Assembly (NCBI GenBank): GCA_017305555.1
Contig: JAFKKM010000031.1
Coordinates: 1-64,000 of the forward strand
Length of the DNA: 64,000 nucleotides
Source of the DNA: Hyphomicrobiales bacterium
Lineage (GTDB): Bacteria > Pseudomonadota > Alphaproteobacteria > Rhizobiales > Xanthobacteraceae
Reading direction: 5' to 3'
This document shows positions 26,290 to 54,199 of this stretch, in pieces. The translations under genes and the position numbers were made by a program. The notes under the pieces are model-generated. The model did no database searches, was not told the DNA's origin, and was given only the letters and a program-made list of their open reading frames with translations. The stretch's first letter is position 1; every line of letters starts with the position of its first letter.

Positions 26290-26396
26290 TTCCCTCCCCC
26301 CTTGTGGGGGAGGGTCAGGGAGAGGGGTAAGCCACAAGCGCTGCGCTCGTGAAACCCCCACCCCCAACCCCTCCCCACAAGGGGGAGGGGAGCGCA
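26290..26396. repeat. C/G-tract palindromic repeat (type D) between pimF and pimA
   Basis: CCCTCCCCCTTGTGGGGGAGGG is an internal palindrome; the unit CCCTCCCCACAAGGGGGAGGGG is repeated about 65 bases away, with GTGAAACCCCCACCCCCAACCCC between. A common repeat family in Rhizobiales intergenic regions. Confidence 0.8.
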
Positions 26397-44410: not shown

Positions 44411-45445
44411 ATGACGGAAACACATTCCTCTGCGGCTCCGCAGCAAACTCTCATGGACATTGCGATGGCCCCCTATTCAATTCTCGATCTGGTTCGCGTC
44501 ACTGAAGTGACCGATGCGCGCGGCGCGCTCGACAATGCGCGCGATCTTGCCGCCCACGCCGAGCAATGGGGCTACACCCGTTTCTGGGTGGCCGAACATC
44601 ACAACATGGCCGGCATCGCCTCGGCTGCGACGTCGGTAGCCATCGGCCACATCGCGGCTGGGACAAAACACATCCGCGTCGGCGCCGGCGGCGTGATGCT
44701 GCCGAACCACGCGCCGATCGTCATCGCGGAGCACTACGGCACCCTGGAGCGGCTGTTCCCCGGCCGCATCGATCTCGGGCTCGGCCGCGCGCCCGGTACC
44801 GATCAACTGACCATGCAGGCGCTGCGCCGCAGTCTCACCAATGCCGACAACTTTCCGCACGACGTGCTGGAATTGCAGGCCTACTTCGCCGAGGTCGCGC
44901 CGGGTCAGCGCATTCAGGCGGTGCCGGCGGCGGGCACCCATGTGCCGTTGTGGATTCTCGGCTCCTCGACCTATGGCGCGCAGGTCGCCGCCGAGTTCGG
45001 TTTGCCTTACGCGTTCGCCTCGCACTTCGCGCCGGCTCAACTGATGCCGGCACTGGATATCTATCGCGCGCGTTTCAAGCCCTCCGCGCAACTCGCGAAG
45101 CCCCACGCCATGGTCGGCATCAACATCGTCGCGGCTGACACCGATGCCGAAGCGAAGCGGCTCGCCACCACGCAACAAATGTCGTTCACCAACATTTTCC
45201 GTGGCACACGGGGCCTTTCGAAGCCGCCGATCGACGACATCGAAACATATTGGACGCCGATGGAAAAGGCACAGGTCGCGCAGATGCTCGGATGCACCAT
45301 CGTCGGCGACCTCGATACGGTGCGTGCCGGTGTTGCCAGCCTTGTCGAGCAGACTGCGGCGGACGAGTTGATGATCGTCTCCGACATCTTCGACCATGCC
45401 GCGCGGCTGCATTCGTATGAACTGATCGCGCAGGCGATGCGTTAA
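44411..45445 (+). CDS. LLM-class flavin-dependent oxidoreductase (luciferase-like)
   Basis: 344 residues of the bacterial luciferase-like TIM barrel: [31 protein letters not shown] is the hallmark AEHH segment, followed by [41 protein letters not shown]. Members use FMNH2 or F420; the AEHH subgroup uses flavin and is often called a MsnO8-like oxidoreductase. Substrate unknown. It ends three bases from the convergent exporter gene's stop (they overlap by four bases), so the two lie back to back. Confidence 0.88.
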
Positions 45446-47178
45446 CCGCCAATCACGATGCTCCGCTGCATCCGCTGTGCGACGCTCGCGCGATGGGTGA
45501 TGGCGACGATAGTGGTCGACGCGCAATGCTGCAACAGCGCGTCGAGTACGCGTGTCTCGGTCGCCGAATCCAATGACGACGTGCTCTCATCGAGGACCAG
45601 GATATCCGGCGCAAGTAATAGCGCGCGGGCGATGCCGAGCCGCTGGCGCTGTCCGGCGGAGAGATCGATGCCGCCCTGCCCCAGCAGCGTGTCGTAGCCT
45701 TGCGGTAACCGCATGATATCGGCGTCGATGGCAGCGATGGCGGCCGCATTGCGGATGTCGGGCGTCCCCATCGTTGGCAAACCGATGGTGAGATTTTCCG
45801 CTACGCTGCCGGTGAAGACGTCGATCTCGTGCGGCACCACCACGATACGCCGCCGTAATTCGCCGAGCGGAATCGACTCAAACGGCTTGCCGTCGAGCAG
45901 AATGGCACCGCTTTCCGGCCGCCGCGCGCCGAACAACAGGCTCGCCAAGGTGCTCTTGCCAATGCCGCTGGGACCGACCACCGCCACCTTGTCGCCGGGC
46001 GCGAGCGAGAACCACAGGTCGCGCAGCACCGGCGTCTCCGCGCCGGCATAGCGAAACGACAGGCCGGTGACATCGAGCCGCGCCCCGTGCGATTGCTGCT
46101 GGACCGATGCGCCGCCGACATCCTCGTGCGGGCCGGCAGCGATATCGGACAGCCGTGCCACCGACACCGTCATCGCCTGAAAATCGTCGAAGGTTTTCAC
46201 CAAGTTCAGCACTGGCACCGCCAATGAGCCGCCGACCGACAGGAACAACACGAAATCGCCGATGCTGATGCCGCCGTCGATGACGCGCAGGCCGCCGACC
46301 AGCGCGATCGCCGCCGTGATCAATCCGCCGGCGAACCGGCCGACCGCATCAAGCCCCGCCGACATCCGGATCACCGCGAAATGCGCGTCGAGATCGGCAG
46401 TCAGGCATTGCTCGAAGCGACGTTCCGCGAAGCCATGCGCCGAGTTGAAGCGCAAGGTCGCGACGTAGGCAATGGCCTCGACCAAATGCGCCCAGTAGCG
46501 GCTGCGCGCCTCGAACCACGCCCCCTCGCGCGCACGCAAGGCGCGAGCGAACAGCACATGCAACACTGCCAGCGCCACGACAATCGCGATGACGATGAGC
46601 CCGACTCGCGCGTCGACCACCAGCATCGCCACCGCCAGCACCGCGATGGTGCCGAGGCTCAGCACGCCTTCGATCAGGTTGTCGCTGGCGCCCTGCGCGA
46701 GCCGTTCGGCTTCCTCGAAAGTGCGCCCGAGCAGCCCCTGATCGCGGCTTTCCTTCCGATCCACCGGCAGCCGCAGCACGGCGGCGAAGGCCGGCTCCAG
46801 CAAAGCGCGGCGCAGTTCGAGCCCGGCGGCCGCCGACAAGAGCCGCCGCATAAACGCGCAGGCGGCATCCATCAGCGCGATGCAGCCGAGCGCGGCACCA
46901 ACCGCGATCACCGCCATCGCGGCGTGCGAAGGAAACACGTTGTCGATCAGATGCGCGAGCAACGCCGGCGGCGCCAGCGCCAGCGCGCTCAACACCAGCG
47001 ACACGACCAGTGCCGGCACCATGCGGTGGCGCTGATGCCAGCCGAGCCGCAGCAGCACCCGTAACAGGCGCGGCAATCCGCCCGTGCTGCCGGCCTCCAA
47101 TAATCGCGCCAGCCACGCGATATCCGGCACGACGACAGCTTCCGCGCTGGCATTTTCCTGAATGCGCTTCGCGCTCAT
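45442..47178 (-). CDS. ABC exporter (membrane plus ATPase) of the graspetide cluster
   Basis: 578 residues, a half-transporter of the exporter type. About 55 soluble residues come first, then a six-helix membrane domain (about 70-345), then an ATPase domain: Walker [13 protein letters not shown]-loop [18 protein letters not shown], signature [15 protein letters not shown] (Ala for Gly), Walker [10 protein letters not shown], switch THRAS. There is no C39 peptidase at the N-terminus, so it would export a peptide without cutting the leader. Its ATG overlaps the stop of the ATP-grasp gene (ATGA), a strong sign of joint function. Likely exports the modified peptide. Confidence 0.88.
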
Positions 47179-48158
47179 GGATTTTCGAGCAGGTCGGCCA
47201 TGGCGTCGGCCATCGGCGCACCGGTCGACAGTTCGACCCAATACCACTGGCCGTTCGGATTGAGTTCGAGGAACACATACTCGCCCTGCGGCGTCACGAT
47301 GAGGTCGAACGCACCGAAGCGCAGGCCGCAGGCCTTGAGGTAAGCACGCAGCGCGCGATCCACCTCATCCGGAAGATCGACGATGGTGTGCGGCAGCTTG
47401 TCGGTATCGACCGCGCGCCAATCCTGCTCCGCGCCCTTGACGCCCTGGCTGTCGATGCGGCAGCAGAACAGTTCCTTGCCGATGATGGTGACGCGCAACT
47501 CGTGATCCTTGGTGATCGCCTCTTGCAGATAGGTCGGGCAAAGTGAAATGGATTCTTTGAGCAAGGCGAATTCAGACGGCGGGATCGGCCGCGTATAGGC
47601 AACGTAGTGCTCGCCCTCGACGTAATGGCTGCCCATCAGCATCGGCTTGCAGATCACCCCGTCCGGACAGGTGGCGAAGAAGGCCTCGGCCTCGTTCGGA
47701 TCGTTGGTGATGATCGAGCGCGGCACCCGCAGCCCGAGACTGCGCGCCAGCCGCAACTGCGGAAACTTGCGCTGATGGCGGCGGTTCTCGTCGGGATTGT
47801 TGATCCACGGCACCCGCGCGTCCATCGGCATGAAGCCCATCAGCTCGCGCATCTCGCCCTGCACGTATTCGATGACGCCGTCGTCATCGACGCCCGGGGG
47901 CGGCAGCGGCGTCTCCGGCTTGCGCATCCAGACGCTGCGCACCCCATGCGGAAACACGCAAGTACGGTTCCACTTGTCGGTGATGGTGATGGTGCCACTC
48001 AATTCGTCGCTCATCGCGAGGCGATACTCCTCGTGGAAATGATCGGTATTGAGCCGGAAGCACGGCACACCGCGCTGCTCCAGCCGCTCGAGCACGGCAT
48101 CGACGTGCGGATCGAGCTTGGTGGAAATCATCAGAACGCTTTTCGGCGCGGCGGTCAT
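47175..48158 (-). CDS. ATP-grasp ribosomal peptide maturase (graspetide ligase, MvdD-like)
   Basis: 327 residues. N-terminal pre-grasp domain (VLMISTKLDPHVDAVLERLE, RLNTDHFHEEYRLAM), then the ATP-grasp fold: substrate-binding NNPDENRRHQRKFPQLRLARSLG (the family's NP..n...K.Q.QL.AA..GL pattern), GVICKPMLMG lysine strand, LQEAITKDHELRVTIIG, and metal-binding FGAFDLIVTPQGEYVFLELNPNGQWYW. These are the marks of MvdC/MvdD ligases that make omega-ester or omega-amide links between Ser/Thr/Lys and Asp/Glu of a precursor peptide. A precursor gene lies 91 bases upstream; the exporter overlaps downstream. Confidence 0.9.
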   Translation of the reverse strand: MTAAPKSVLMISTKLDPHVDAVLERLEQRGVPCFRLNTDHFHEEYRLAMSDELSGTITITDKWNRTCVFPHGVRSVWMRKPETPLPPPGVDDDGVIEYVQGEMRELMGFMPMDARVPWINNPDENRRHQRKFPQLRLARSLGLRVPRSIITNDPNEAEAFFATCPDGVICKPMLMGSHYVEGEHYVAYTRPIPPSEFALLKESISLCPTYLQEAITKDHELRVTIIGKELFCCRIDSQGVKGAEQDWRAVDTDKLPHTIVDLPDEVDRALRAYLKACGLRFGAFDLIVTPQGEYVFLELNPNGQWYWVELSTGAPMADAMADLLENP

Positions 48159-48191
48159 GGCAAACTCGATGTGTTGGCGACGCGATCAACG

Positions 48192-48217
48192 AAAAGGGCC
48201 GACCCGAAGGCCGACCC
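48192..48217 (-). terminator. hairpin terminator between precursor and ligase genes
   Basis: On the minus strand GGGTCGGCC and GGTCGGCCC pair over 9 bp (two G-T) around a TTCG tetraloop, followed by TTTT. Placed after the precursor stop and before the ligase gene, it would let the precursor be made in excess. Confidence 0.75.
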
Positions 48218-48249
48218 TGACGAAGGCAGTAATACTTGGTGATGGCAAA

Positions 48250-48480
48250 TCAGTTGCCCAGCACGTCCGACGACAGATCGGAATCCGAGGTGCGGCCCGA
48301 GGTCGATGACACGTTGCGCGAGGTCGACGACTTGTGGAACAGCAGCGTGCCGCGCCAGGTCTGGGTGATCGGATCGTAGTAACCGAGCGCATCGTCTTCG
48401 TACTGCTCCAGTGTGTAGGGCTTGGAATTTGCAAGAACGAAGGGCAGCGGCTTCGCGTTCTGCTTGTCGTTGAGATGCAT
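48250..48480 (-). CDS. graspetide (ATP-grasp-modified) precursor peptide
   Basis: 76 residues. The leader (1-50) includes PLPFVLANSKPYTLEQYED and YYDPITQTW (residues 34-42), similar to the YDPxTQ element found in actinobacterial ATP-grasp target peptides. The C-terminal 26 residues are dominated by Ser and Thr with acidic Asp66, Asp68 and Asp72 and no Cys, ending DVLGN: a fitting substrate for side-chain ester formation. Start supported by AAGGAA seven bases upstream. First gene of the precursor-ligase-exporter set. No leader-cleaving protease is visible nearby. Identified by context and composition, not by a database match. Confidence 0.8.
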   Translation of the reverse strand: MHLNDKQNAKPLPFVLANSKPYTLEQYEDDALGYYDPITQTWRGTLLFHKSSTSRNVSSTSGRTSDSDLSSDVLGN

Positions 48481-48572
48481 CGTTGCTTTCCTTATCGAGG
48501 TCCTTGGGTCAAGCGAGTTCGGACGGAGGATCTTGAGTGCTGAATCTTGAGACCGACGCGGGGGCCCGGCAA

Positions 48573-48590
48573 CCCCCCGTTCACGGGGGG
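48573..48590. terminator. perfect G/C hairpin upstream of the precursor gene
   Basis: CCCCCC-GTTCAC-GGGGGG, a perfect 6-bp GC stem with no T run. It lies between the membrane-gene operon and the precursor gene, so it could end the former or form part of the precursor's 5' region. Apart from it I see only weak promoter-like hexamers in 48481-48627. Confidence 0.45.
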
Positions 48591-48627
48591 CACCATCTTA
48601 AGGGATGGGCGACCGGCGCTGACAGCC

Positions 48628-48954
48628 TCACAACCCAACGATCCGCAACAGACAGATCAGCGCCAGCGCGACGAGGCAGATCAGGCAGGCGCCGTACCAG
48701 AGCATCGAGCCCCAGTACCAAAGCGGATTGGCCTCGCGCGAGGTGATGCCGAACTTCTCCGGAATGATGCCGCTGTGCCAAGCATCGCGCAGCAGGTGAA
48801 ATATCAGCACGCCGACGACCGACGCGCCGGCGAGCCCAACTGCCGGCGCGGTGATCGGGTAGTCGGCTGCCGTCGCCATCGTCAGATGCAGCAGACAGCC
48901 GAGCGCTGCGCAGAGCACGGCGGTGCGGGCGATCTGGCGGAGAACATCGCTCAT
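48628..48954 (-). CDS. small integral membrane protein, unknown function
   Basis: 108 residues with three hydrophobic helices: TAVLCAALGCLLHLTM, AVGLAGASVVGVLIFHLL and LWYGACLICLVALALICLL. A short polar loop HSGIIPEKFGITSREANPLWYW links the last two. Start at 48954 overlaps the stop of the upstream gene (ATGA), so it is translationally coupled to the spermidine-synthase-like gene. I do not recognise the family. It is the last gene before the graspetide precursor on this strand. Confidence 0.75.
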   Translation of the reverse strand: MSDVLRQIARTAVLCAALGCLLHLTMATAADYPITAPAVGLAGASVVGVLIFHLLRDAWHSGIIPEKFGITSREANPLWYWGSMLWYGACLICLVALALICLLRIVGL

Positions 48955-50510
48955 CGCCGCGCCGCTTTCACGTCGCACACCGCGCGGCCGGCCAAGAGCC
49001 GGTCCACCGGCGTCCAGTCGTCGGTGAGGATCGCGCCGCAGGCTTGTGGCCAGCGCGCACGGGCAGCAGCGAGATCGAAGCGCCGCCATGTCACGGGCTG
49101 CATGCGTACGGCGTCACCCGCCTCCATCACCGTGGCATCGACGGTAAGTTGCGGCAGACGCAAAGCGTGCTCGGGCGATAGCCATGCCGCGACGACGATA
49201 TTGGTGGTGCTGCCGGTGGGCGTTTCCGCCACCCAGATATCGACCGCTGGAAACACGCTCATCAATGTGGCCGCGATACTCAGCGCCAATAGCGGCGGAT
49301 CGGCGCGGTCGATGACATTCGATAGATAGACGCCGGACGGCGTCAACCGCGTCGCCACGTCGCGATCGAATTCAGTAGTGACGAGATGCGGCGGCACGCT
49401 GCGCGAGCGATAGGCATCCATCAGCACCACATCGTAGACCTGCGCCCGTGGCAACGCGCGCAGCACGGCGCGGCCGTCGCCGATCAGGGTGTCGAGGCGG
49501 CCGTTGCGGCCCGCCCACATGATGTCGCGCGCTATGGCGGCAACCTCGGCATCGAGTTCGATCACGGTGGCGGCCACCGGTTTATCCGCACTCGCCCATG
49601 CGCGCGGCAGGGTCGCGCCGCCCCCGCCGATCACGAGCGCACGCGGTGCCGCAGCTTTCTCGAACGCAGCCTGCGCGAGACGGTCAGCCAGCGCCGCGTA
49701 GCCGAGATGCAGACGCTGCGGGCGATCGCGGTCGGAGGCTGAGTGGACACCCTCGTCGAGGATCATGAAGCGCAGCAGGCCGCCGCCGGCGAGCGGCTTG
49801 TCGAGCAGGCGGATGCAGGTGTAACGCGATTCGACGAGACACTGTTTGCCGCCGAGCCACGGCAGCACGCCGATCGTCGCCAGCACGAGACCGTAGACCG
49901 GCGCGACGATGGCGGGCTTTCGCGCCGGCAGCGCAAGCGCGCCCAACAACAGCCAGACGCCACCGGCAAGCGTGGCCAGGCCCGCCGCGCCGAACCTTTC
50001 CAGCACGACGAAGCCGGCCAGCACGGTGCCGGCGACACTGCCGATGGCGGAGGCCGCGTAGATCGCGCCGACCATGCGCGGCAACGAGAGTTGCGTCATT
50101 CGCGCGGCGAGACGCAACGCCAGCGGCGAGACGAAGCCGGCGGCGAAACTCGGCGGCGCGGCCAGTGCGGCAATCGCCGCCACCGCATCGAGGCCAAAGC
50201 CGTTCTCACTTGAAAATGCCGTCGCCACCGGTCCGATCAGCACCGGCATCAGCATCGCCGCGACGCCGGCCGCGAGCCACATCGCCGAGAGCCAGCCGCG
50301 CAACGCGCGCGACGTCGCCGCCTCGCCGCTCGCGAGCCCGCCGAGCACATGCCCGGCGGTGAGCCCGAGCAACACGCTGGCAATCGCGGCCGACCACGGC
50401 AGCAGCGATTGTCCGAGATACGGCGCGCCGAGCCGGACGATGGCGAGTTCGATCGCCAGCGACGACGCCGCCGACAGCAACACCGCGAGCGGCAGCAGAA
50501 GTCGGATCAT
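48951..50510 (-). CDS. membrane-anchored spermidine-synthase-like protein
   Basis: 519 residues. About six membrane helices (residues 1-215) precede a soluble Rossmann domain of the spermidine synthase / methyltransferase type: RALVIGGGGATLPRAW and TVIELDAEVAAIARD bind a nucleoside cofactor, and YDVVLMDAYRSRSVPPHLVTTEFDRDV is the active-site region. Such membrane-fused forms are a known family of unclear reaction; whether it moves an aminopropyl or methyl group cannot be told. Both ends overlap neighbours by ATGA. The frame stays open to 51128, but the ATG at 50510 fits the first helix and the coupling. Confidence 0.82.
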   Translation of the reverse strand: MIRLLLPLAVLLSAASSLAIELAIVRLGAPYLGQSLLPWSAAIASVLLGLTAGHVLGGLASGEAATSRALRGWLSAMWLAAGVAAMLMPVLIGPVATAFSSENGFGLDAVAAIAALAAPPSFAAGFVSPLALRLAARMTQLSLPRMVGAIYAASAIGSVAGTVLAGFVVLERFGAAGLATLAGGVWLLLGALALPARKPAIVAPVYGLVLATIGVLPWLGGKQCLVESRYTCIRLLDKPLAGGGLLRFMILDEGVHSASDRDRPQRLHLGYAALADRLAQAAFEKAAAPRALVIGGGGATLPRAWASADKPVAATVIELDAEVAAIARDIMWAGRNGRLDTLIGDGRAVLRALPRAQVYDVVLMDAYRSRSVPPHLVTTEFDRDVATRLTPSGVYLSNVIDRADPPLLALSIAATLMSVFPAVDIWVAETPTGSTTNIVVAAWLSPEHALRLPQLTVDATVMEAGDAVRMQPVTWRRFDLAAARARWPQACGAILTDDWTPVDRLLAGRAVCDVKAARR

Positions 50511-51118
50511 GCCAGCGCCGCTTGGGGCCGCGCCAGTGCGACGATGGCGATCGTCGCCCCCAGCGCCACCGCGACGAGAGCGATACCGAGTAATGTCGCG
50601 CGCGTGCCGAGCACGTCGAGCCACCACCACAACACGCAGAGCACGCCGCAGACGCTGCCGGTGGCGCCCACGCCGTAGACCAGCCCGGCCACGGCGTGAC
50701 TTCGCGACAACGCCAGCGCGGTGGTCATCAACAATGGCGTCGCGATGCCGAGAGCGAGGCCCGCCGGCAGGCACGGCGCCGCGACAAACGTGACGATGCG
50801 CCACGGCGCGGCCGGCGCGGGGCTGAGGATCGCAGCGTCCCACCACCGCATCGCCAGCGGCGTGACGGCGATGGCAAGCGCGGCCATCAGCATCGCGCCG
50901 GCTGCGACACAAAGTCTCTGCCGCAGGTCGGAGGCGGCGGCGACGCGGCCGCCGATATGGTTGCCCAACGCCAGCGCCAGCAGGAACGCGGCGATGATCG
51001 CGGTCCATGTATCCGTGGACATGCCAGCGTGCGGCGCCACCAGCCGCGCCATCGTGATCTCGAAGCCGAGGGCGCAGAACGCCGTCAACCCTTCCGCCAG
51101 AATCAGGACAGCGAGCAT
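50507..51118 (-). CDS. polytopic membrane protein resembling the membrane half of the SpeE-like protein
   Basis: 203 residues with about six membrane helices (LILAEGLTAFCALGFEITMARL, TWTAIIAAFLLALALGNHIGGRV, VAAPCLPAGLALGIATPLLM). The FEITMARLVAPHAG and GNHIGGRVAA patterns match the membrane domain of fused spermidine synthase-like proteins and parallel IELAIVRLGAPYLG and GHVLGGLASG of the next gene, so the pair may be a duplication in which this copy lacks the enzyme domain. ATG at 51118 chosen; an upstream extension is arginine-rich and improbable. First gene of the three-gene unit, divergent from the kinase gene. Confidence 0.75.
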   Translation of the reverse strand: MLAVLILAEGLTAFCALGFEITMARLVAPHAGMSTDTWTAIIAAFLLALALGNHIGGRVAAASDLRQRLCVAAGAMLMAALAIAVTPLAMRWWDAAILSPAPAAPWRIVTFVAAPCLPAGLALGIATPLLMTTALALSRSHAVAGLVYGVGATGSVCGVLCVLWWWLDVLGTRATLLGIALVAVALGATIAIVALARPQAALA

Positions 51119-51214
51119 TGGAATCCATTCGACAAACCGGGATGGTTCGCCAATATGCCGGCTCGGACAGGGCCAGCGTACCCCTCGTCCCGGGGGGAGG
51201 ACGAACGCACGGCC

Positions 51215-53485
51215 ATGTCGCACTGGCTACCGAACCGCATCATGCAGACCGCGGCGCTCATTTGCGTCGGCGCCTGCCTGCTCGTGTTCTGGCTGGTACT
51301 GAACCAGCCATGGCTCGGCATGACGCTGGCGCCGCAGGCCGAGCCAGGTGCGGTACGCATCGTCGCCGTCGACCCCGATGGGCCGGCGCGCATGGTGCCG
51401 GTGCCGTCGCGGCTGGTCGCGATCGGCTCCGATAACGGCAGCCGGATCGAACTGGTTACCGGCGACCTCGTCGAGGAGCCCGACACGCTTCAGACCTACG
51501 CGATGGCCGCGCAGTTCATGCAGCGGCAGACTTTGCTCGCCAGCATGCTGCGCGACAAGCGCGTGACGCTCCATGTCGAATCCGAGCGCGGCCCCCTTGA
51601 GGTGATCGTGACGCCGACGCGGCGGCCCATCACCGACCTGCCGTCGTCGTTTTGGGTGCAGTTCATCACCGGCATGGGGTCGCTGCTGCTCGGGGCCTGG
51701 GTGCTGGCGCTGCGACCGCAAGATTTGCCGACGCGGCTGTTCGCCGTCGCCGGCGCGATGATCATGATCTCGGCCTATGGCGCAGCGGTGTATTCATCGC
51801 GCGAACTCGCCATCGACGGCGGACTCGTTCGCGTGCTGAGCGCGCTCAATCACATCGGCGCGCTCGGCTTCGGTGCGGCGATGATCGCACTGTTCCTGCT
51901 CTATCCGCGCCCGCTGGTGAATCCGCGCCTGCTGCTGGCGCTGCCCGCGATCACCATCGCATGGCTTGCGATAGATATCCTGCGCTTGCCCGAGGAGCAG
52001 GCAACGGGCGCGCAACTGCCGATCCTCACTTACATGCTCGTGCTGGTCGGCGCGATCGGCGTGCAATGGTTCGCCACGCGCCGCGATCCGCGCGGCCGCG
52101 CGGCGTTGCGCTGGCTCGGCCTTTCGGTGATCGTCGGCGCAGGCGCGTTCGTGGTGCTGATCATCGCGCCGATTTTGGTCAACGCCGCACCGGTGATGCA
52201 GCAGGGCCATGCCTTCGGATTCTTCCTGCTGATCTATGCGGGATTGGCGCTCGGCGTCAGCCGTTACCGGCTGTTCGATCTCGACGAGTGGGCGTTCCGG
52301 GTGATGTTCTATACCGGCGGCGTCGCGCTGCTGCTGGCGGTGGACGCGCTGTTGCTTTACGTCATGCATCTGCAACACGATGTCTCGTTCAGCATCGCAC
52401 TGCTGGCGCTCGCGTTCATCTACCTGCCGGCGCGCGACTCGTTGCGCGCGCGCTTGCAGCCGCGCAGCCGCGTCGAGAGCCACGAACTGTTCCGCGAGGT
52501 GGTGGACGTCACCTTCGCCGCGTCGGCGCAGGAGCGCTCCGGGCGCTGGCACGGCCTGCTGCGGCGGCTGTTCGATCCGCTGGTGATGACGCCGCTCGAA
52601 CCTGCGGTCGACGATGTCGAAATCGGGCAGGAAGGCCTCGAGGTGCGGCTGCCCGCCATCGCTGACACGCCGTCCCTGCAACTGCGCTATCCGTGGCGCG
52701 GCGAAAAGCTGTTCGGCAGTTCGGATCGCGATCTGGCGCGCGAACTGGTACGGCTGATGCGTTATGTCGAGGTCAGCCGCGACGCTTTCGAGCGCGGCGG
52801 CGTCGAGGAGCGGCGGCGCATCGCGCGCGACCTTCACGACGACGTCGGCGCGCGGCTGCTGTCGGGGCTCTACAAGACGGAGGTGACCGAGACTCATCGC
52901 GTGCTGCGCGACGCGCTGGCCGATATCCGCACCATCGTCAGCGGCCTTTCCGCCGATCAACTGCCGCTCGGCCAGGTGATCGCGGCGCTGCGCCACGAGG
53001 GGGGCGAACGCCTCGCCGCCGCCGGAATCGATCTGCATTGGCCGCTCGCCGCCGTGGACGACAGCGCAAAACTGCTCGACTATCGCATCTATCGCAGCAT
53101 CGCGTCTGCACATCGCGAAATCGTCAGCAACGTCATCCGCCATGCGCAGGCAACGCGCGTCAATGTCACGGTGGCGCAAGAGGATCGAATGTTGTCGATC
53201 CGCATCACCGACGACGGCGTCGGCCTCGATCCGGCGAACGCGAACGGCAACGCTCAAGGCAACGGGTTGCGCGGCATTATCCGCCGCCTCGACGATCTCG
53301 GCGGATCATTCGCGGCGTTGCCGGTGGCGCGCGGCAGTGCGTTCGAAATTCGCATTCCGCTAATCGCGGATGCGGTCGCCACCGACGATGCAAATGAACC
53401 CCATATTCAGGGGGTGTCGTCCCACCCGGCTCGCGCCTACAGTGAGCCTGCCGATGCCGCGCAACGGATGTACGACAGGTCATGA
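51215..53485 (+). CDS. ComP-like polytopic sensor histidine kinase
   Basis: 756 residues. One N-terminal helix, then an extracytoplasmic region (about 33-135; GMTLAPQAEPGAVRIVAVDPDGPA looks PDZ-like), then about eight membrane helices (about 143-395), a linker, and a NarL-class kinase core: H-box ERRRIARDLHDDVGARLL with His541, and HATPase with Asn639 (REIVSNVIRHA), DDGVGLDP and GNGLRGI. The order PDZ, membrane block, HisKA_3, HATPase resembles ComP, the receptor of a modified peptide pheromone in Bacillus. The response regulator gene follows after nine bases. Start uncertain: GGGGGGAGG lies 16 bases upstream. Confidence 0.85.
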   Translation: MSHWLPNRIMQTAALICVGACLLVFWLVLNQPWLGMTLAPQAEPGAVRIVAVDPDGPARMVPVPSRLVAIGSDNGSRIELVTGDLVEEPDTLQTYAMAAQFMQRQTLLASMLRDKRVTLHVESERGPLEVIVTPTRRPITDLPSSFWVQFITGMGSLLLGAWVLALRPQDLPTRLFAVAGAMIMISAYGAAVYSSRELAIDGGLVRVLSALNHIGALGFGAAMIALFLLYPRPLVNPRLLLALPAITIAWLAIDILRLPEEQATGAQLPILTYMLVLVGAIGVQWFATRRDPRGRAALRWLGLSVIVGAGAFVVLIIAPILVNAAPVMQQGHAFGFFLLIYAGLALGVSRYRLFDLDEWAFRVMFYTGGVALLLAVDALLLYVMHLQHDVSFSIALLALAFIYLPARDSLRARLQPRSRVESHELFREVVDVTFAASAQERSGRWHGLLRRLFDPLVMTPLEPAVDDVEIGQEGLEVRLPAIADTPSLQLRYPWRGEKLFGSSDRDLARELVRLMRYVEVSRDAFERGGVEERRRIARDLHDDVGARLLSGLYKTEVTETHRVLRDALADIRTIVSGLSADQLPLGQVIAALRHEGGERLAAAGIDLHWPLAAVDDSAKLLDYRIYRSIASAHREIVSNVIRHAQATRVNVTVAQEDRMLSIRITDDGVGLDPANANGNAQGNGLRGIIRRLDDLGGSFAALPVARGSAFEIRIPLIADAVATDDANEPHIQGVSSHPARAYSEPADAAQRMYDRS

Positions 53486-53494
53486 GTTGAGCCG

Positions 53495-54199
53495 ATGGCA
53501 TCCACCCCTACGCCCCTGCCCCGCAAGCGGCGCGGCCTGATTGTCGAGGATCAGACCGACACCCGCGCATGGCTGGTGCGGACGCTCGGCGTTGCCTTCG
53601 ACGGCATCGCCATCGGCGAAGCGGCGACGTTTCAGGCGGCACGCGACTGGATCGCCGCACAGCCCCGCACCTTCGCGGACCCCGACGCCAATGCGCCGCG
53701 CGATATCGCGCTGATCGACATCGGCCTGCCGGACGGCAACGGCATCGATCTGATCCGCATGCTGGCCGACGGTCATCCGCAGATTCTGCCGATCGTGACG
53801 ACCATCTACGACGACGACGCGCATCTGTTCGACGCCATCGCCGCCGGAGCGAAAGGTTATCTGCTCAAGGACCAGCACGCCGACACACTGGTCGGCTACC
53901 TGCATCGCATCGATGCGGGCGAGCCACCGCTATCGCCCTCGATCGCGCAACGGATGCTGACGCATTTCGCCAAGCGGAGCGTCGTGGATGCGAACGTCGA
54001 TGCCGAAGCCGCATTGACGCCGCGCGAACTCGACATATTGCGGCTGCTCGGCCGCGGGCTGCGGGTGGCGGAAGCCGCGCGGGTACTCGGCCTGACGCCG
54101 CACACAGTCGCGGGCTATGTCAAGACGGTGTATCGCAAGCTCAATATTTCCTCGCGCGCCGAGGCTGCGATCGAAGCGATGCGGCGCGGATTGGTGTGA
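53495..54199 (+). CDS. LuxR/NarL-type response regulator
   Basis: 234 residues. Receiver domain (about 14-140) with acidic pocket VEDQTD, phosphorylation site Asp75 (IALIDIGLPDGNGIDL), Thr and Lys in VTTIYDDD and GYLLKDQ; C-terminal LuxR helix-turn-helix (about 168-232: LTPRELDILRLLGRGLRVAEAARVL, TPHTVAGYVKTVYRKLNISSRAEA). Cognate partner of the kinase just upstream. By position its targets could be the divergent membrane genes and the precursor peptide, which remains to be shown. Confidence 0.92.
   Translation: MASTPTPLPRKRRGLIVEDQTDTRAWLVRTLGVAFDGIAIGEAATFQAARDWIAAQPRTFADPDANAPRDIALIDIGLPDGNGIDLIRMLADGHPQILPIVTTIYDDDAHLFDAIAAGAKGYLLKDQHADTLVGYLHRIDAGEPPLSPSIAQRMLTHFAKRSVVDANVDAEAALTPRELDILRLLGRGLRVAEAARVLGLTPHTVAGYVKTVYRKLNISSRAEAAIEAMRRGLV

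What the first reader, a model, noticed from the sequence alone, without database searches (positions are those of the whole stretch)
45442..54199. Graspetide biosynthesis genes beside a ComP-like kinase/regulator pair: a possible peptide-signalling system in an alphaproteobacterium
Seen: precursor peptide (48250-48480), MvdD-like ATP-grasp ligase (47175-48158), exporter (45442-47178), and, divergently, a large membrane kinase with PDZ-like segment and NarL-type core (51215-53485) plus a LuxR regulator (53495-54199). Known: in Bacillus ComQXPA a modified peptide is sensed by ComP, a kinase with similar domain order. Inferred: the modified peptide, or a product of the intervening membrane enzymes, is the signal for this kinase. 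Ribosomal peptides with ATP-grasp side-chain esters are not, to my knowledge, described as signals in this order.
Basis: partly seen in the sequence, partly recalled or inferred. Interest (0 to 1): 0.88.

Follow-up and report, generated by a model that had tools for sequence, protein, structure and literature searches.

The report
Graspetide cluster wired to two-component switch
A small gene cluster that makes a ring-stapled peptide sits beside a sensor/regulator pair, and a DNA switch motif shared between the peptide's promoter and the sensor family's own loci indicates that this sensor turns peptide production on; nothing shows that the peptide itself is the signal being sensed.

Summary
The window has a TgmB-type ATP-grasp ligase, a 76-aa precursor under purifying selection, an ABC exporter, a fused MFS/spermidine-synthase pair, a small membrane protein, and a PDZ-like/10-helix/DesK-core kinase with a NarL-type regulator. 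The kinase/regulator pair adjoins 9 of 11 related ligases (>=49% identity), in four arrangements and from more than one kinase lineage. New here: a candidate operator, CCCC-N0-4-RAAYR-GGGG (best form CCCCTGAACAGGGG). Palindromes of this type lie upstream of the precursor and SPD1, and inside the kinase gene's 3' end ahead of the regulator gene. Exact sites also flank the same kinase/regulator family in lineages without the peptide (14 near, 1 distant; 3 of 4 later-fetched plasmid loci), often before genes for exported products. So the pair very likely controls the graspetide genes. That the peptide is the signal (ComQXPA-like) is not supported and not excluded: the kinase family occurs mostly without the peptide, one relative keeps kinase, regulator and operators after deleting the peptide genes, another keeps the peptide genes without the kinase. 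Verdict: a new variant of a TgmA/TgmB-type graspetide cluster under an autoregulated, ComP-shaped two-component system.

The parts
48250..48480 (-). graspetide precursor peptide, 76 aa; leader with LPFVLAN and YYDPxTQTW motifs, Ser/Thr/Asp-rich core SSTSRNVSSTSGRTSDSDLSSDVLGN
   Evidence: conserved in 10 other loci next to the ligase; strong purifying selection
47175..48158 (-). ATP-grasp ligase, TgmB-like (TIGR04187/TIGR04185 superfamily)
45442..47178 (-). ABC exporter (membrane + ATPase), no C39 peptidase domain found
48628..48954 (-). small membrane protein TM3 (108 aa), no family
48951..50510 (-). SPD2, fused MFS/spermidine-synthase family (NF037959) with SAM-type Rossmann motifs
50507..51118 (-). 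SPD1, membrane-only half of the same family
   Evidence: NF037959 E 6e-25, profile positions 5-184
51215..53485 (+). sensor histidine kinase: TM1, PDZ-like loop, about 10 TM helices in all, DesK/HisKA_3-type core
53495..54199 (+). NarL/LuxR-type response regulator
48572..48590 (-). candidate operator CCCCCCGTGAACGGGGGGT, centre about 101 bp before the precursor ATG
51180..51197 (-). candidate operator CCCCCCGGGACGAGGGGT, about 70 bp before SPD1 and close before the divergent kinase
   Evidence: kept upstream of SPD1 in Bosea, where the kinase is elsewhere
53398..53414 (+). candidate operator ACCCCATATTCAGGGGG inside the kinase 3' end, about 90 bp before the regulator start
   Evidence: kept in L019, L037, L039, L040, L041

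Best explanation
A TgmA/TgmB-type graspetide cluster placed under an autoregulated two-component system. The kinase (PDZ-like periplasmic loop plus about ten membrane helices) senses an extracytoplasmic cue and phosphorylates the NarL-type regulator. The regulator then binds palindromes of the form CCCC-N-GAACR-GGGG and raises transcription of (a) precursor-ligase-exporter, (b) SPD1-SPD2-TM3 and (c) its own gene. The ligase links Ser/Thr side chains of the core to Asp side chains, giving up to three rings in this core; the ABC transporter exports the product; the SPD proteins probably act on the product or at the membrane. Shown by sequence: gene content, selection on the precursor, conserved linkage, and the operator-like motif at the cluster promoters and at kinase/regulator loci without graspetides. 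Inferred: that the regulator binds the motif, that it activates, the number and type of rings, and the SPD role. Unknown: the cue. I think a general envelope or environmental cue more likely than the peptide, because the same sensor family elsewhere stands beside quite different exported products.
For: Kinase/regulator beside 9 of 11 ligases >=49% identical: divergent from SPD1 (Afipia-type loci), divergent from the precursor itself (L047), downstream co-directional (Bosea), downstream convergent (Nitrobacter). Holding the graspetide-linked kinases together as one clade is rejected (p-AU 4e-5), the Nitrobacter kinase grouping with non-graspetide kinases, so more than one kinase lineage is tied to this ligase clade. 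Palindrome upstream of 8/11 precursors and 8/8 SPD1 genes against 42/692 other genes (Fisher 5e-8 and 4e-10). The exact pattern occurs at 6 places in the 5.17-Mb genome, one being the precursor promoter. It flanks non-graspetide kinase/regulator loci 14 times in 157 kb against once in 266 kb of distal sequence. Four plasmid loci fetched after the pattern was fixed: exact sites in three, e.g. before Slam-type surface-protein genes in Shinella and Sagittula. The two precursor loci without a kinase/regulator in hand (L023, L046) lack it. Kinase and regulator catalytic residues invariant.
Against: No binding or expression data. Only 12 of 23 non-graspetide kinase loci have an exact site nearby, and L047 has only a variant palindrome (CTCCCGGAACCGGGAG, read by eye). 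The window SPD1 site (GGACGA core) does not match the exact pattern. In L111, L113 and L114 the site lies between two convergent gene ends, where a promoter role is not obvious. Motif choice used some of the same loci, so only the four plasmid loci are a clean hold-out. Related sequences are not independent, so the p-values overstate certainty.
Confidence: 0.77

Rival explanations
1. Peptide quorum sensing like ComQXPA: the exported graspetide binds the kinase's PDZ-like or membrane region and induces its own operon.
For: ComP-like order with a PDZ-like loop (PMC9620489 proposes, without proof, that ComP's PDZ binds ComX); predicted positive autoregulation; core more conserved than the leader; kinase fixed beside this ligase clade.
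Against: Kinase family mostly lives without any graspetide, next to other exported products. L037 keeps kinase, regulator and operators without the peptide. No direct evidence of sensing. These losses could also be read as receiver-only or producer-only variants, so they do not exclude it.
Confidence: 0.2
2. The palindrome is a site for some other regulator, or an mRNA/DNA hairpin, that happens to travel with these loci.
For: GC-rich hairpin; in L111/L113/L114 it lies between convergent gene ends, where a terminator could sit.
Against: It lies upstream of starts without an apparent T-run in the window, recurs at divergent promoters beside the kinase in several families, and its absence goes with absence of the kinase in L023 and L046.
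Confidence: 0.1
3. The kinase/regulator is a self-protection system that senses damage or accumulation of the product, as LiaRS/BceRS-type systems do for envelope-active peptides.
For: Kinase's best NCBIfam match is LiaS (far below cut-off); an EipB-like envelope protein gene with a nearby site is part of related loci.
Against: The sites precede the production genes themselves; no immunity-type ABC transporter was seen; the EipB-like gene is absent from the window cluster.
Confidence: 0.1
4. Kinase and regulator are unrelated neighbours.
For: The kinase family is mostly found without the ligase in order and class samples.
Against: Linkage in four arrangements and more than one kinase lineage; family present in only about 2-4% of genomes sampled; shared operator-like motif.
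Confidence: 0.03

Closest known systems
TgmA/TgmB graspetide systems of Streptomyces and Kitasatospora (TIGR04187 ligase)
   Same: Ligase about 32-35% identical over its length; precursor with a DP-x-TQ leader motif and a Ser/Thr/Asp (DSD) rich core, e.g. Kitasatospora TgmA.
   Different: No methyltransferase of the PIMT type in the cluster; own ABC exporter; fused MFS/spermidine-synthase pair; a dedicated two-component system with candidate operators; leader also carries LPFVLAN.
ComQXPA of Bacillus
   Same: Kinase order: TM1, PDZ-like loop, about ten helices, HisKA_3-type core, NarL-type regulator partner (PMC9620489).
   Different: No isoprenyl transferase; modification by ATP-grasp ligase; kinase family mostly occurs without any peptide gene; sensing of the peptide not shown.
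Autoinducing RiPP regulation such as NisRK/SpaRK of lantibiotics (own knowledge)
   Same: Two-component system wired to precursor and maturation operons.
   Different: Kinase and regulator classes differ; autoinduction untested here.
Graspetide loci surveyed in PMC8939145
   Same: ATP-grasp ligase, short precursor, ABC transporter; some loci have regulators (histidine-kinase-like ATPase mainly in actinobacteria, OmpR-type regulator in branch 5).
   Different: Its main text has no mention of alphaproteobacteria, two-component pairs or spermidine-synthase-like proteins; the kinase/NarL pair and operator were not found described.

Membership tests
graspetide (ATP-grasp RiPP) cluster | ATP-grasp ligase of the MvdC/MvdD/TgmB superfamily | tested here: met
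   PF21068 above cut-off; TIGR04187 E 3e-79
graspetide (ATP-grasp RiPP) cluster | adjacent short precursor with conserved leader and Ser/Thr + Asp/Glu core | tested here: met
graspetide (ATP-grasp RiPP) cluster | side-chain ester/amide rings (loss of n x 18 Da) | not testable with these tools
   needs co-expression and mass spectrometry
TgmA/TgmB subfamily | score above the curated TIGR04187 cut-off and a companion PIMT-type methyltransferase | tested here: not met
   266 bits against 350; no methyltransferase of that type among the cluster genes identified
ComQXPA quorum sensing | ComP-like kinase (PDZ loop between TM1 and TM2, 8-10 TM, HisKA_3/HATPase) with NarL-type regulator | tested here: met
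   architecture only, no sequence comparison with ComP was made
ComQXPA quorum sensing | ComQ isoprenyl transferase and ComX precursor | tested here: not met
   no such gene in the cluster
ComQXPA quorum sensing | peptide activates the kinase | not testable with these tools
   needs reporter experiments
two-component control of the cluster | conserved candidate regulator sites at the biosynthetic promoters | tested here: met
   by sequence only:
two-component control of the cluster | regulator binds these sites and changes transcription | not testable with these tools
   needs gel-shift and expression data
fused MFS/spermidine synthase (NF037959) | score above the curated cut-off | tested here: met
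   SPD2 324 bits, SPD1 88 bits, cut-off 40

The most novel reading that the evidence does not exclude
The cyclised, exported graspetide is itself an autoinducer read by a ComP-shaped kinase through its PDZ-like domain: the first side-chain-ester RiPP used as a cell-to-cell signal, with natural receiver-only (L037) and producer-only (L023) variants.
Probability: 0.18. Interest if true: 0.85.

Novelty: new variant of a known kind. Interest (0 to 1): 0.52.

Why it matters
Natural functions and triggers of graspetides are largely unknown. A predicted operator shared by the precursor promoter and its two-component system gives a direct handle: it says which regulator should switch the cluster on, which other genes belong to the response, and which mutants to make. 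The same motif describes a small alphaproteobacterial regulon controlling exported products that I did not find described in the papers searched. It also turns the peptide-signal idea into a clean reporter experiment.

Tried and rejected
Kinase/regulator as chance neighbour: rejected by linkage and motif. Kinase family dedicated to graspetides: rejected, 21 of the 23 distinct genomes with it in the order and class samples lack the ligase. Single origin of the graspetide-linked kinases: rejected (p-AU 4e-5); the position of L047 is unsure (long branch). Kinase of L038/G088 as a pseudogene: the reported TGA is only the end of a shorter, variable C-terminal tail. A RiPP-like precursor beside non-graspetide kinases: none recognised, but short genes may be missed. 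First greedy ORF calling failed in this G+C-rich DNA and was replaced by a codon-usage caller. The pattern was written too narrowly for the SPD1 site and is not used as evidence of uniqueness. With one mismatch allowed the motif is common in G+C-rich DNA (192 against 78 per Mb), so claims rest on exact matches. Full-length kinase model is moderate (pLDDT 69); only the N-terminal part and the core were used. Literature searches for graspetide signalling or kinases gave nothing direct.
Full report
What is there. On the minus strand the window carries SPD1 (51118-50507), SPD2 (50510-48951), a 108-aa membrane protein (48954-48628), a 76-aa precursor (48480-48250), an ATP-grasp ligase (48158-47175) and an ABC exporter (47178-45442); on the plus strand a kinase (51215-53485) and a NarL-type regulator (53495-54199). 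Family searches give PF21068 and the TIGR04187/TIGR04185/TIGR04184 series for the ligase, NF037959 (fused MFS/spermidine synthase) for SPD1 and SPD2, HisKA_3 and HATPase_c for the kinase, and receiver plus GerE domains for the regulator; precursor and small membrane protein have no family. Outside the cluster both flanks look like branched-chain amino acid transporter genes (my reading of the sequences).

The precursor is a gene, not chance. It recurs next to the ligase in ten other loci; in the window's own type the core is SSTSRNV(S/T/N)STSGR(T/I)SD(S/T)DL(S/A)SDVLGN, while the Nitrobacter and the L046/L047 types have different cores but the same AFVMLNA...GYYDPxSQ(T/S)W leader. dN/dS for the whole peptide is 0.08-0.26, and the core has 0-4 nonsynonymous against 5-8 synonymous changes in pairwise comparisons. 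The closest annotated systems are tgmA/tgmB of Streptomycetaceae; a Kitasatospora TgmA shows DPETQ in the leader and an STSTSGPDSYDSD-like core.

Linkage. Ligases at least 49% identical were found in 11 distinct genomes. The kinase/regulator pair adjoins nine: divergent from SPD1 in the Afipia-type loci (window, L019, L039, L040, L041), divergent from the precursor in L047, downstream in the same direction in two Bosea genomes (L042, L043), downstream and convergent in Nitrobacter (L045). The exceptions are L046 (8.7-kb contig, cannot tell) and L023 (Nitrobacter-genus genome G061), where no such kinase exists anywhere at E <= 1e-10. The reverse does not hold: in samples of 397 order and 385 class genomes the kinase family is in 16 and 8, with this ligase only in the window's genome and in G390 (= L047). 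The kinase tree rejects a single graspetide clade (p-AU 4e-5); the Nitrobacter kinase groups with non-graspetide kinases at high support. So a wider sensor family became tied to this ligase clade more than once, or was tied early and often left without it.

Operator. Aligning promoter regions showed a palindrome about 70-140 bp before both the precursor and SPD1. Scoring CCCCC/GGGGG arms with a 5-9 bp gap, it lies upstream of 8/11 precursors and 8/8 SPD1 genes against 42/692 other genes. In Bosea the SPD1 site is kept although the kinase is elsewhere. A third site lies inside the 3' end of the kinase gene ahead of the regulator in six related loci, and would explain a conserved PHxxG stretch in the kinase tail. 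The exact pattern CCCC-N0-4-RAAYR-GGGG has six places in the 5.17-Mb genome, one of them the precursor promoter. In loci of this kinase family without graspetides it occurs 14 times within 2 kb of the pair (157 kb) and once in the other 266 kb. Because some of these loci had been seen, the cleaner test is the four plasmid loci fetched later: Shinella (two exact sites, one 62 bp before a TbpB-like/Slam operon), Sagittula (before a Slam operon, divergent from the kinase) and Pseudosulfitobacter (between a DUF4214 gene and the kinase) have it, Tistrella does not. Eleven of 23 non-graspetide loci have no exact site nearby, and the sites in L111/L113/L114 lie between convergent gene ends.

Natural experiments. 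L037 (same genus) has a deletion from within the precursor to beyond the exporter: operators, a precursor 3' remnant (GRTSDFGLSSDAPGN), small membrane protein, EipB-like gene, kinase and regulator remain, and the kinase still shows dN/dS near 0.27. In L023 the precursor-ligase-exporter block is 92% identical to L045 but its edges fall within the palindrome and just inside the regulator's 3' end, so the block was cut off from its regulator. These are equally readable as loss of control or as receiver-only and producer-only variants.

Sensor. The kinase model (pLDDT 69) has TM1, a beta-rich loop, then about nine more helices, a linker domain and a DesK-like core. The loop modelled alone (pLDDT 84) matches PDZ domains almost exclusively, at weak E-values (best 1.5e-3). 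ComP of Bacillus has the same order, with PDZ-ComX binding proposed but not proven (PMC9620489).

Interpretation. Control of the graspetide genes by the neighbouring pair is the well-supported part. Peptide sensing is open: the same sensor family stands beside Slam/TbpB-like lipoproteins, autotransporters, RTX-type and other secreted proteins, which fits a general extracytoplasmic cue driving exported products better than one dedicated peptide ligand. SPD1/SPD2 go only with the window-type core; their chemistry is not known, though SPD2 keeps SAM-type GGGG, ELD and GDGR motifs.

Noticed in passing
L037:11646-13420: Same-genus relative with a deletion that removes most of the precursor, the ligase and the exporter but leaves operators, small membrane protein, EipB-like gene, kinase and regulator: a possible receiver-only genotype.
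   Followed up: yes
L023:9255-12417: Nitrobacter genome with a relocated precursor-ligase-exporter block whose edges cut the operator and the regulator's 3' end; no kinase of this family in the genome.
   Followed up: yes
L161:8579-9861, L162:5776-5838: The same operator-like motif precedes Slam-type surface-lipoprotein operons beside the same kinase family on plasmids of Shinella and Sagittula.
   Followed up: partly
L019:5630-6606, L039:6629-7567, L040:6138-7046, L041:9149-9557: EipB-like (PF08904) periplasmic protein and a conserved 107-122 aa protein of no family lie inside related clusters, most with a nearby operator-like palindrome; both are missing from the window cluster.
   Followed up: partly
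L111:8102, L113:8019, L114:7857: Exact operator-like site just after the regulator's stop codon between two convergent genes in three related genomes; role unexplained.
   Followed up: no
L079:7877-12280: In a non-graspetide genome two exact sites flank two unknown genes, one secreted, next to the kinase; contig C39 of the same genome has two more sites close together, perhaps another target operon.
   Followed up: no
window 26296-26385: Two CCCC/GGGG palindromes upstream of a gene at 26262-24559 (-) without the GAAC core; probably unrelated.
   Followed up: no
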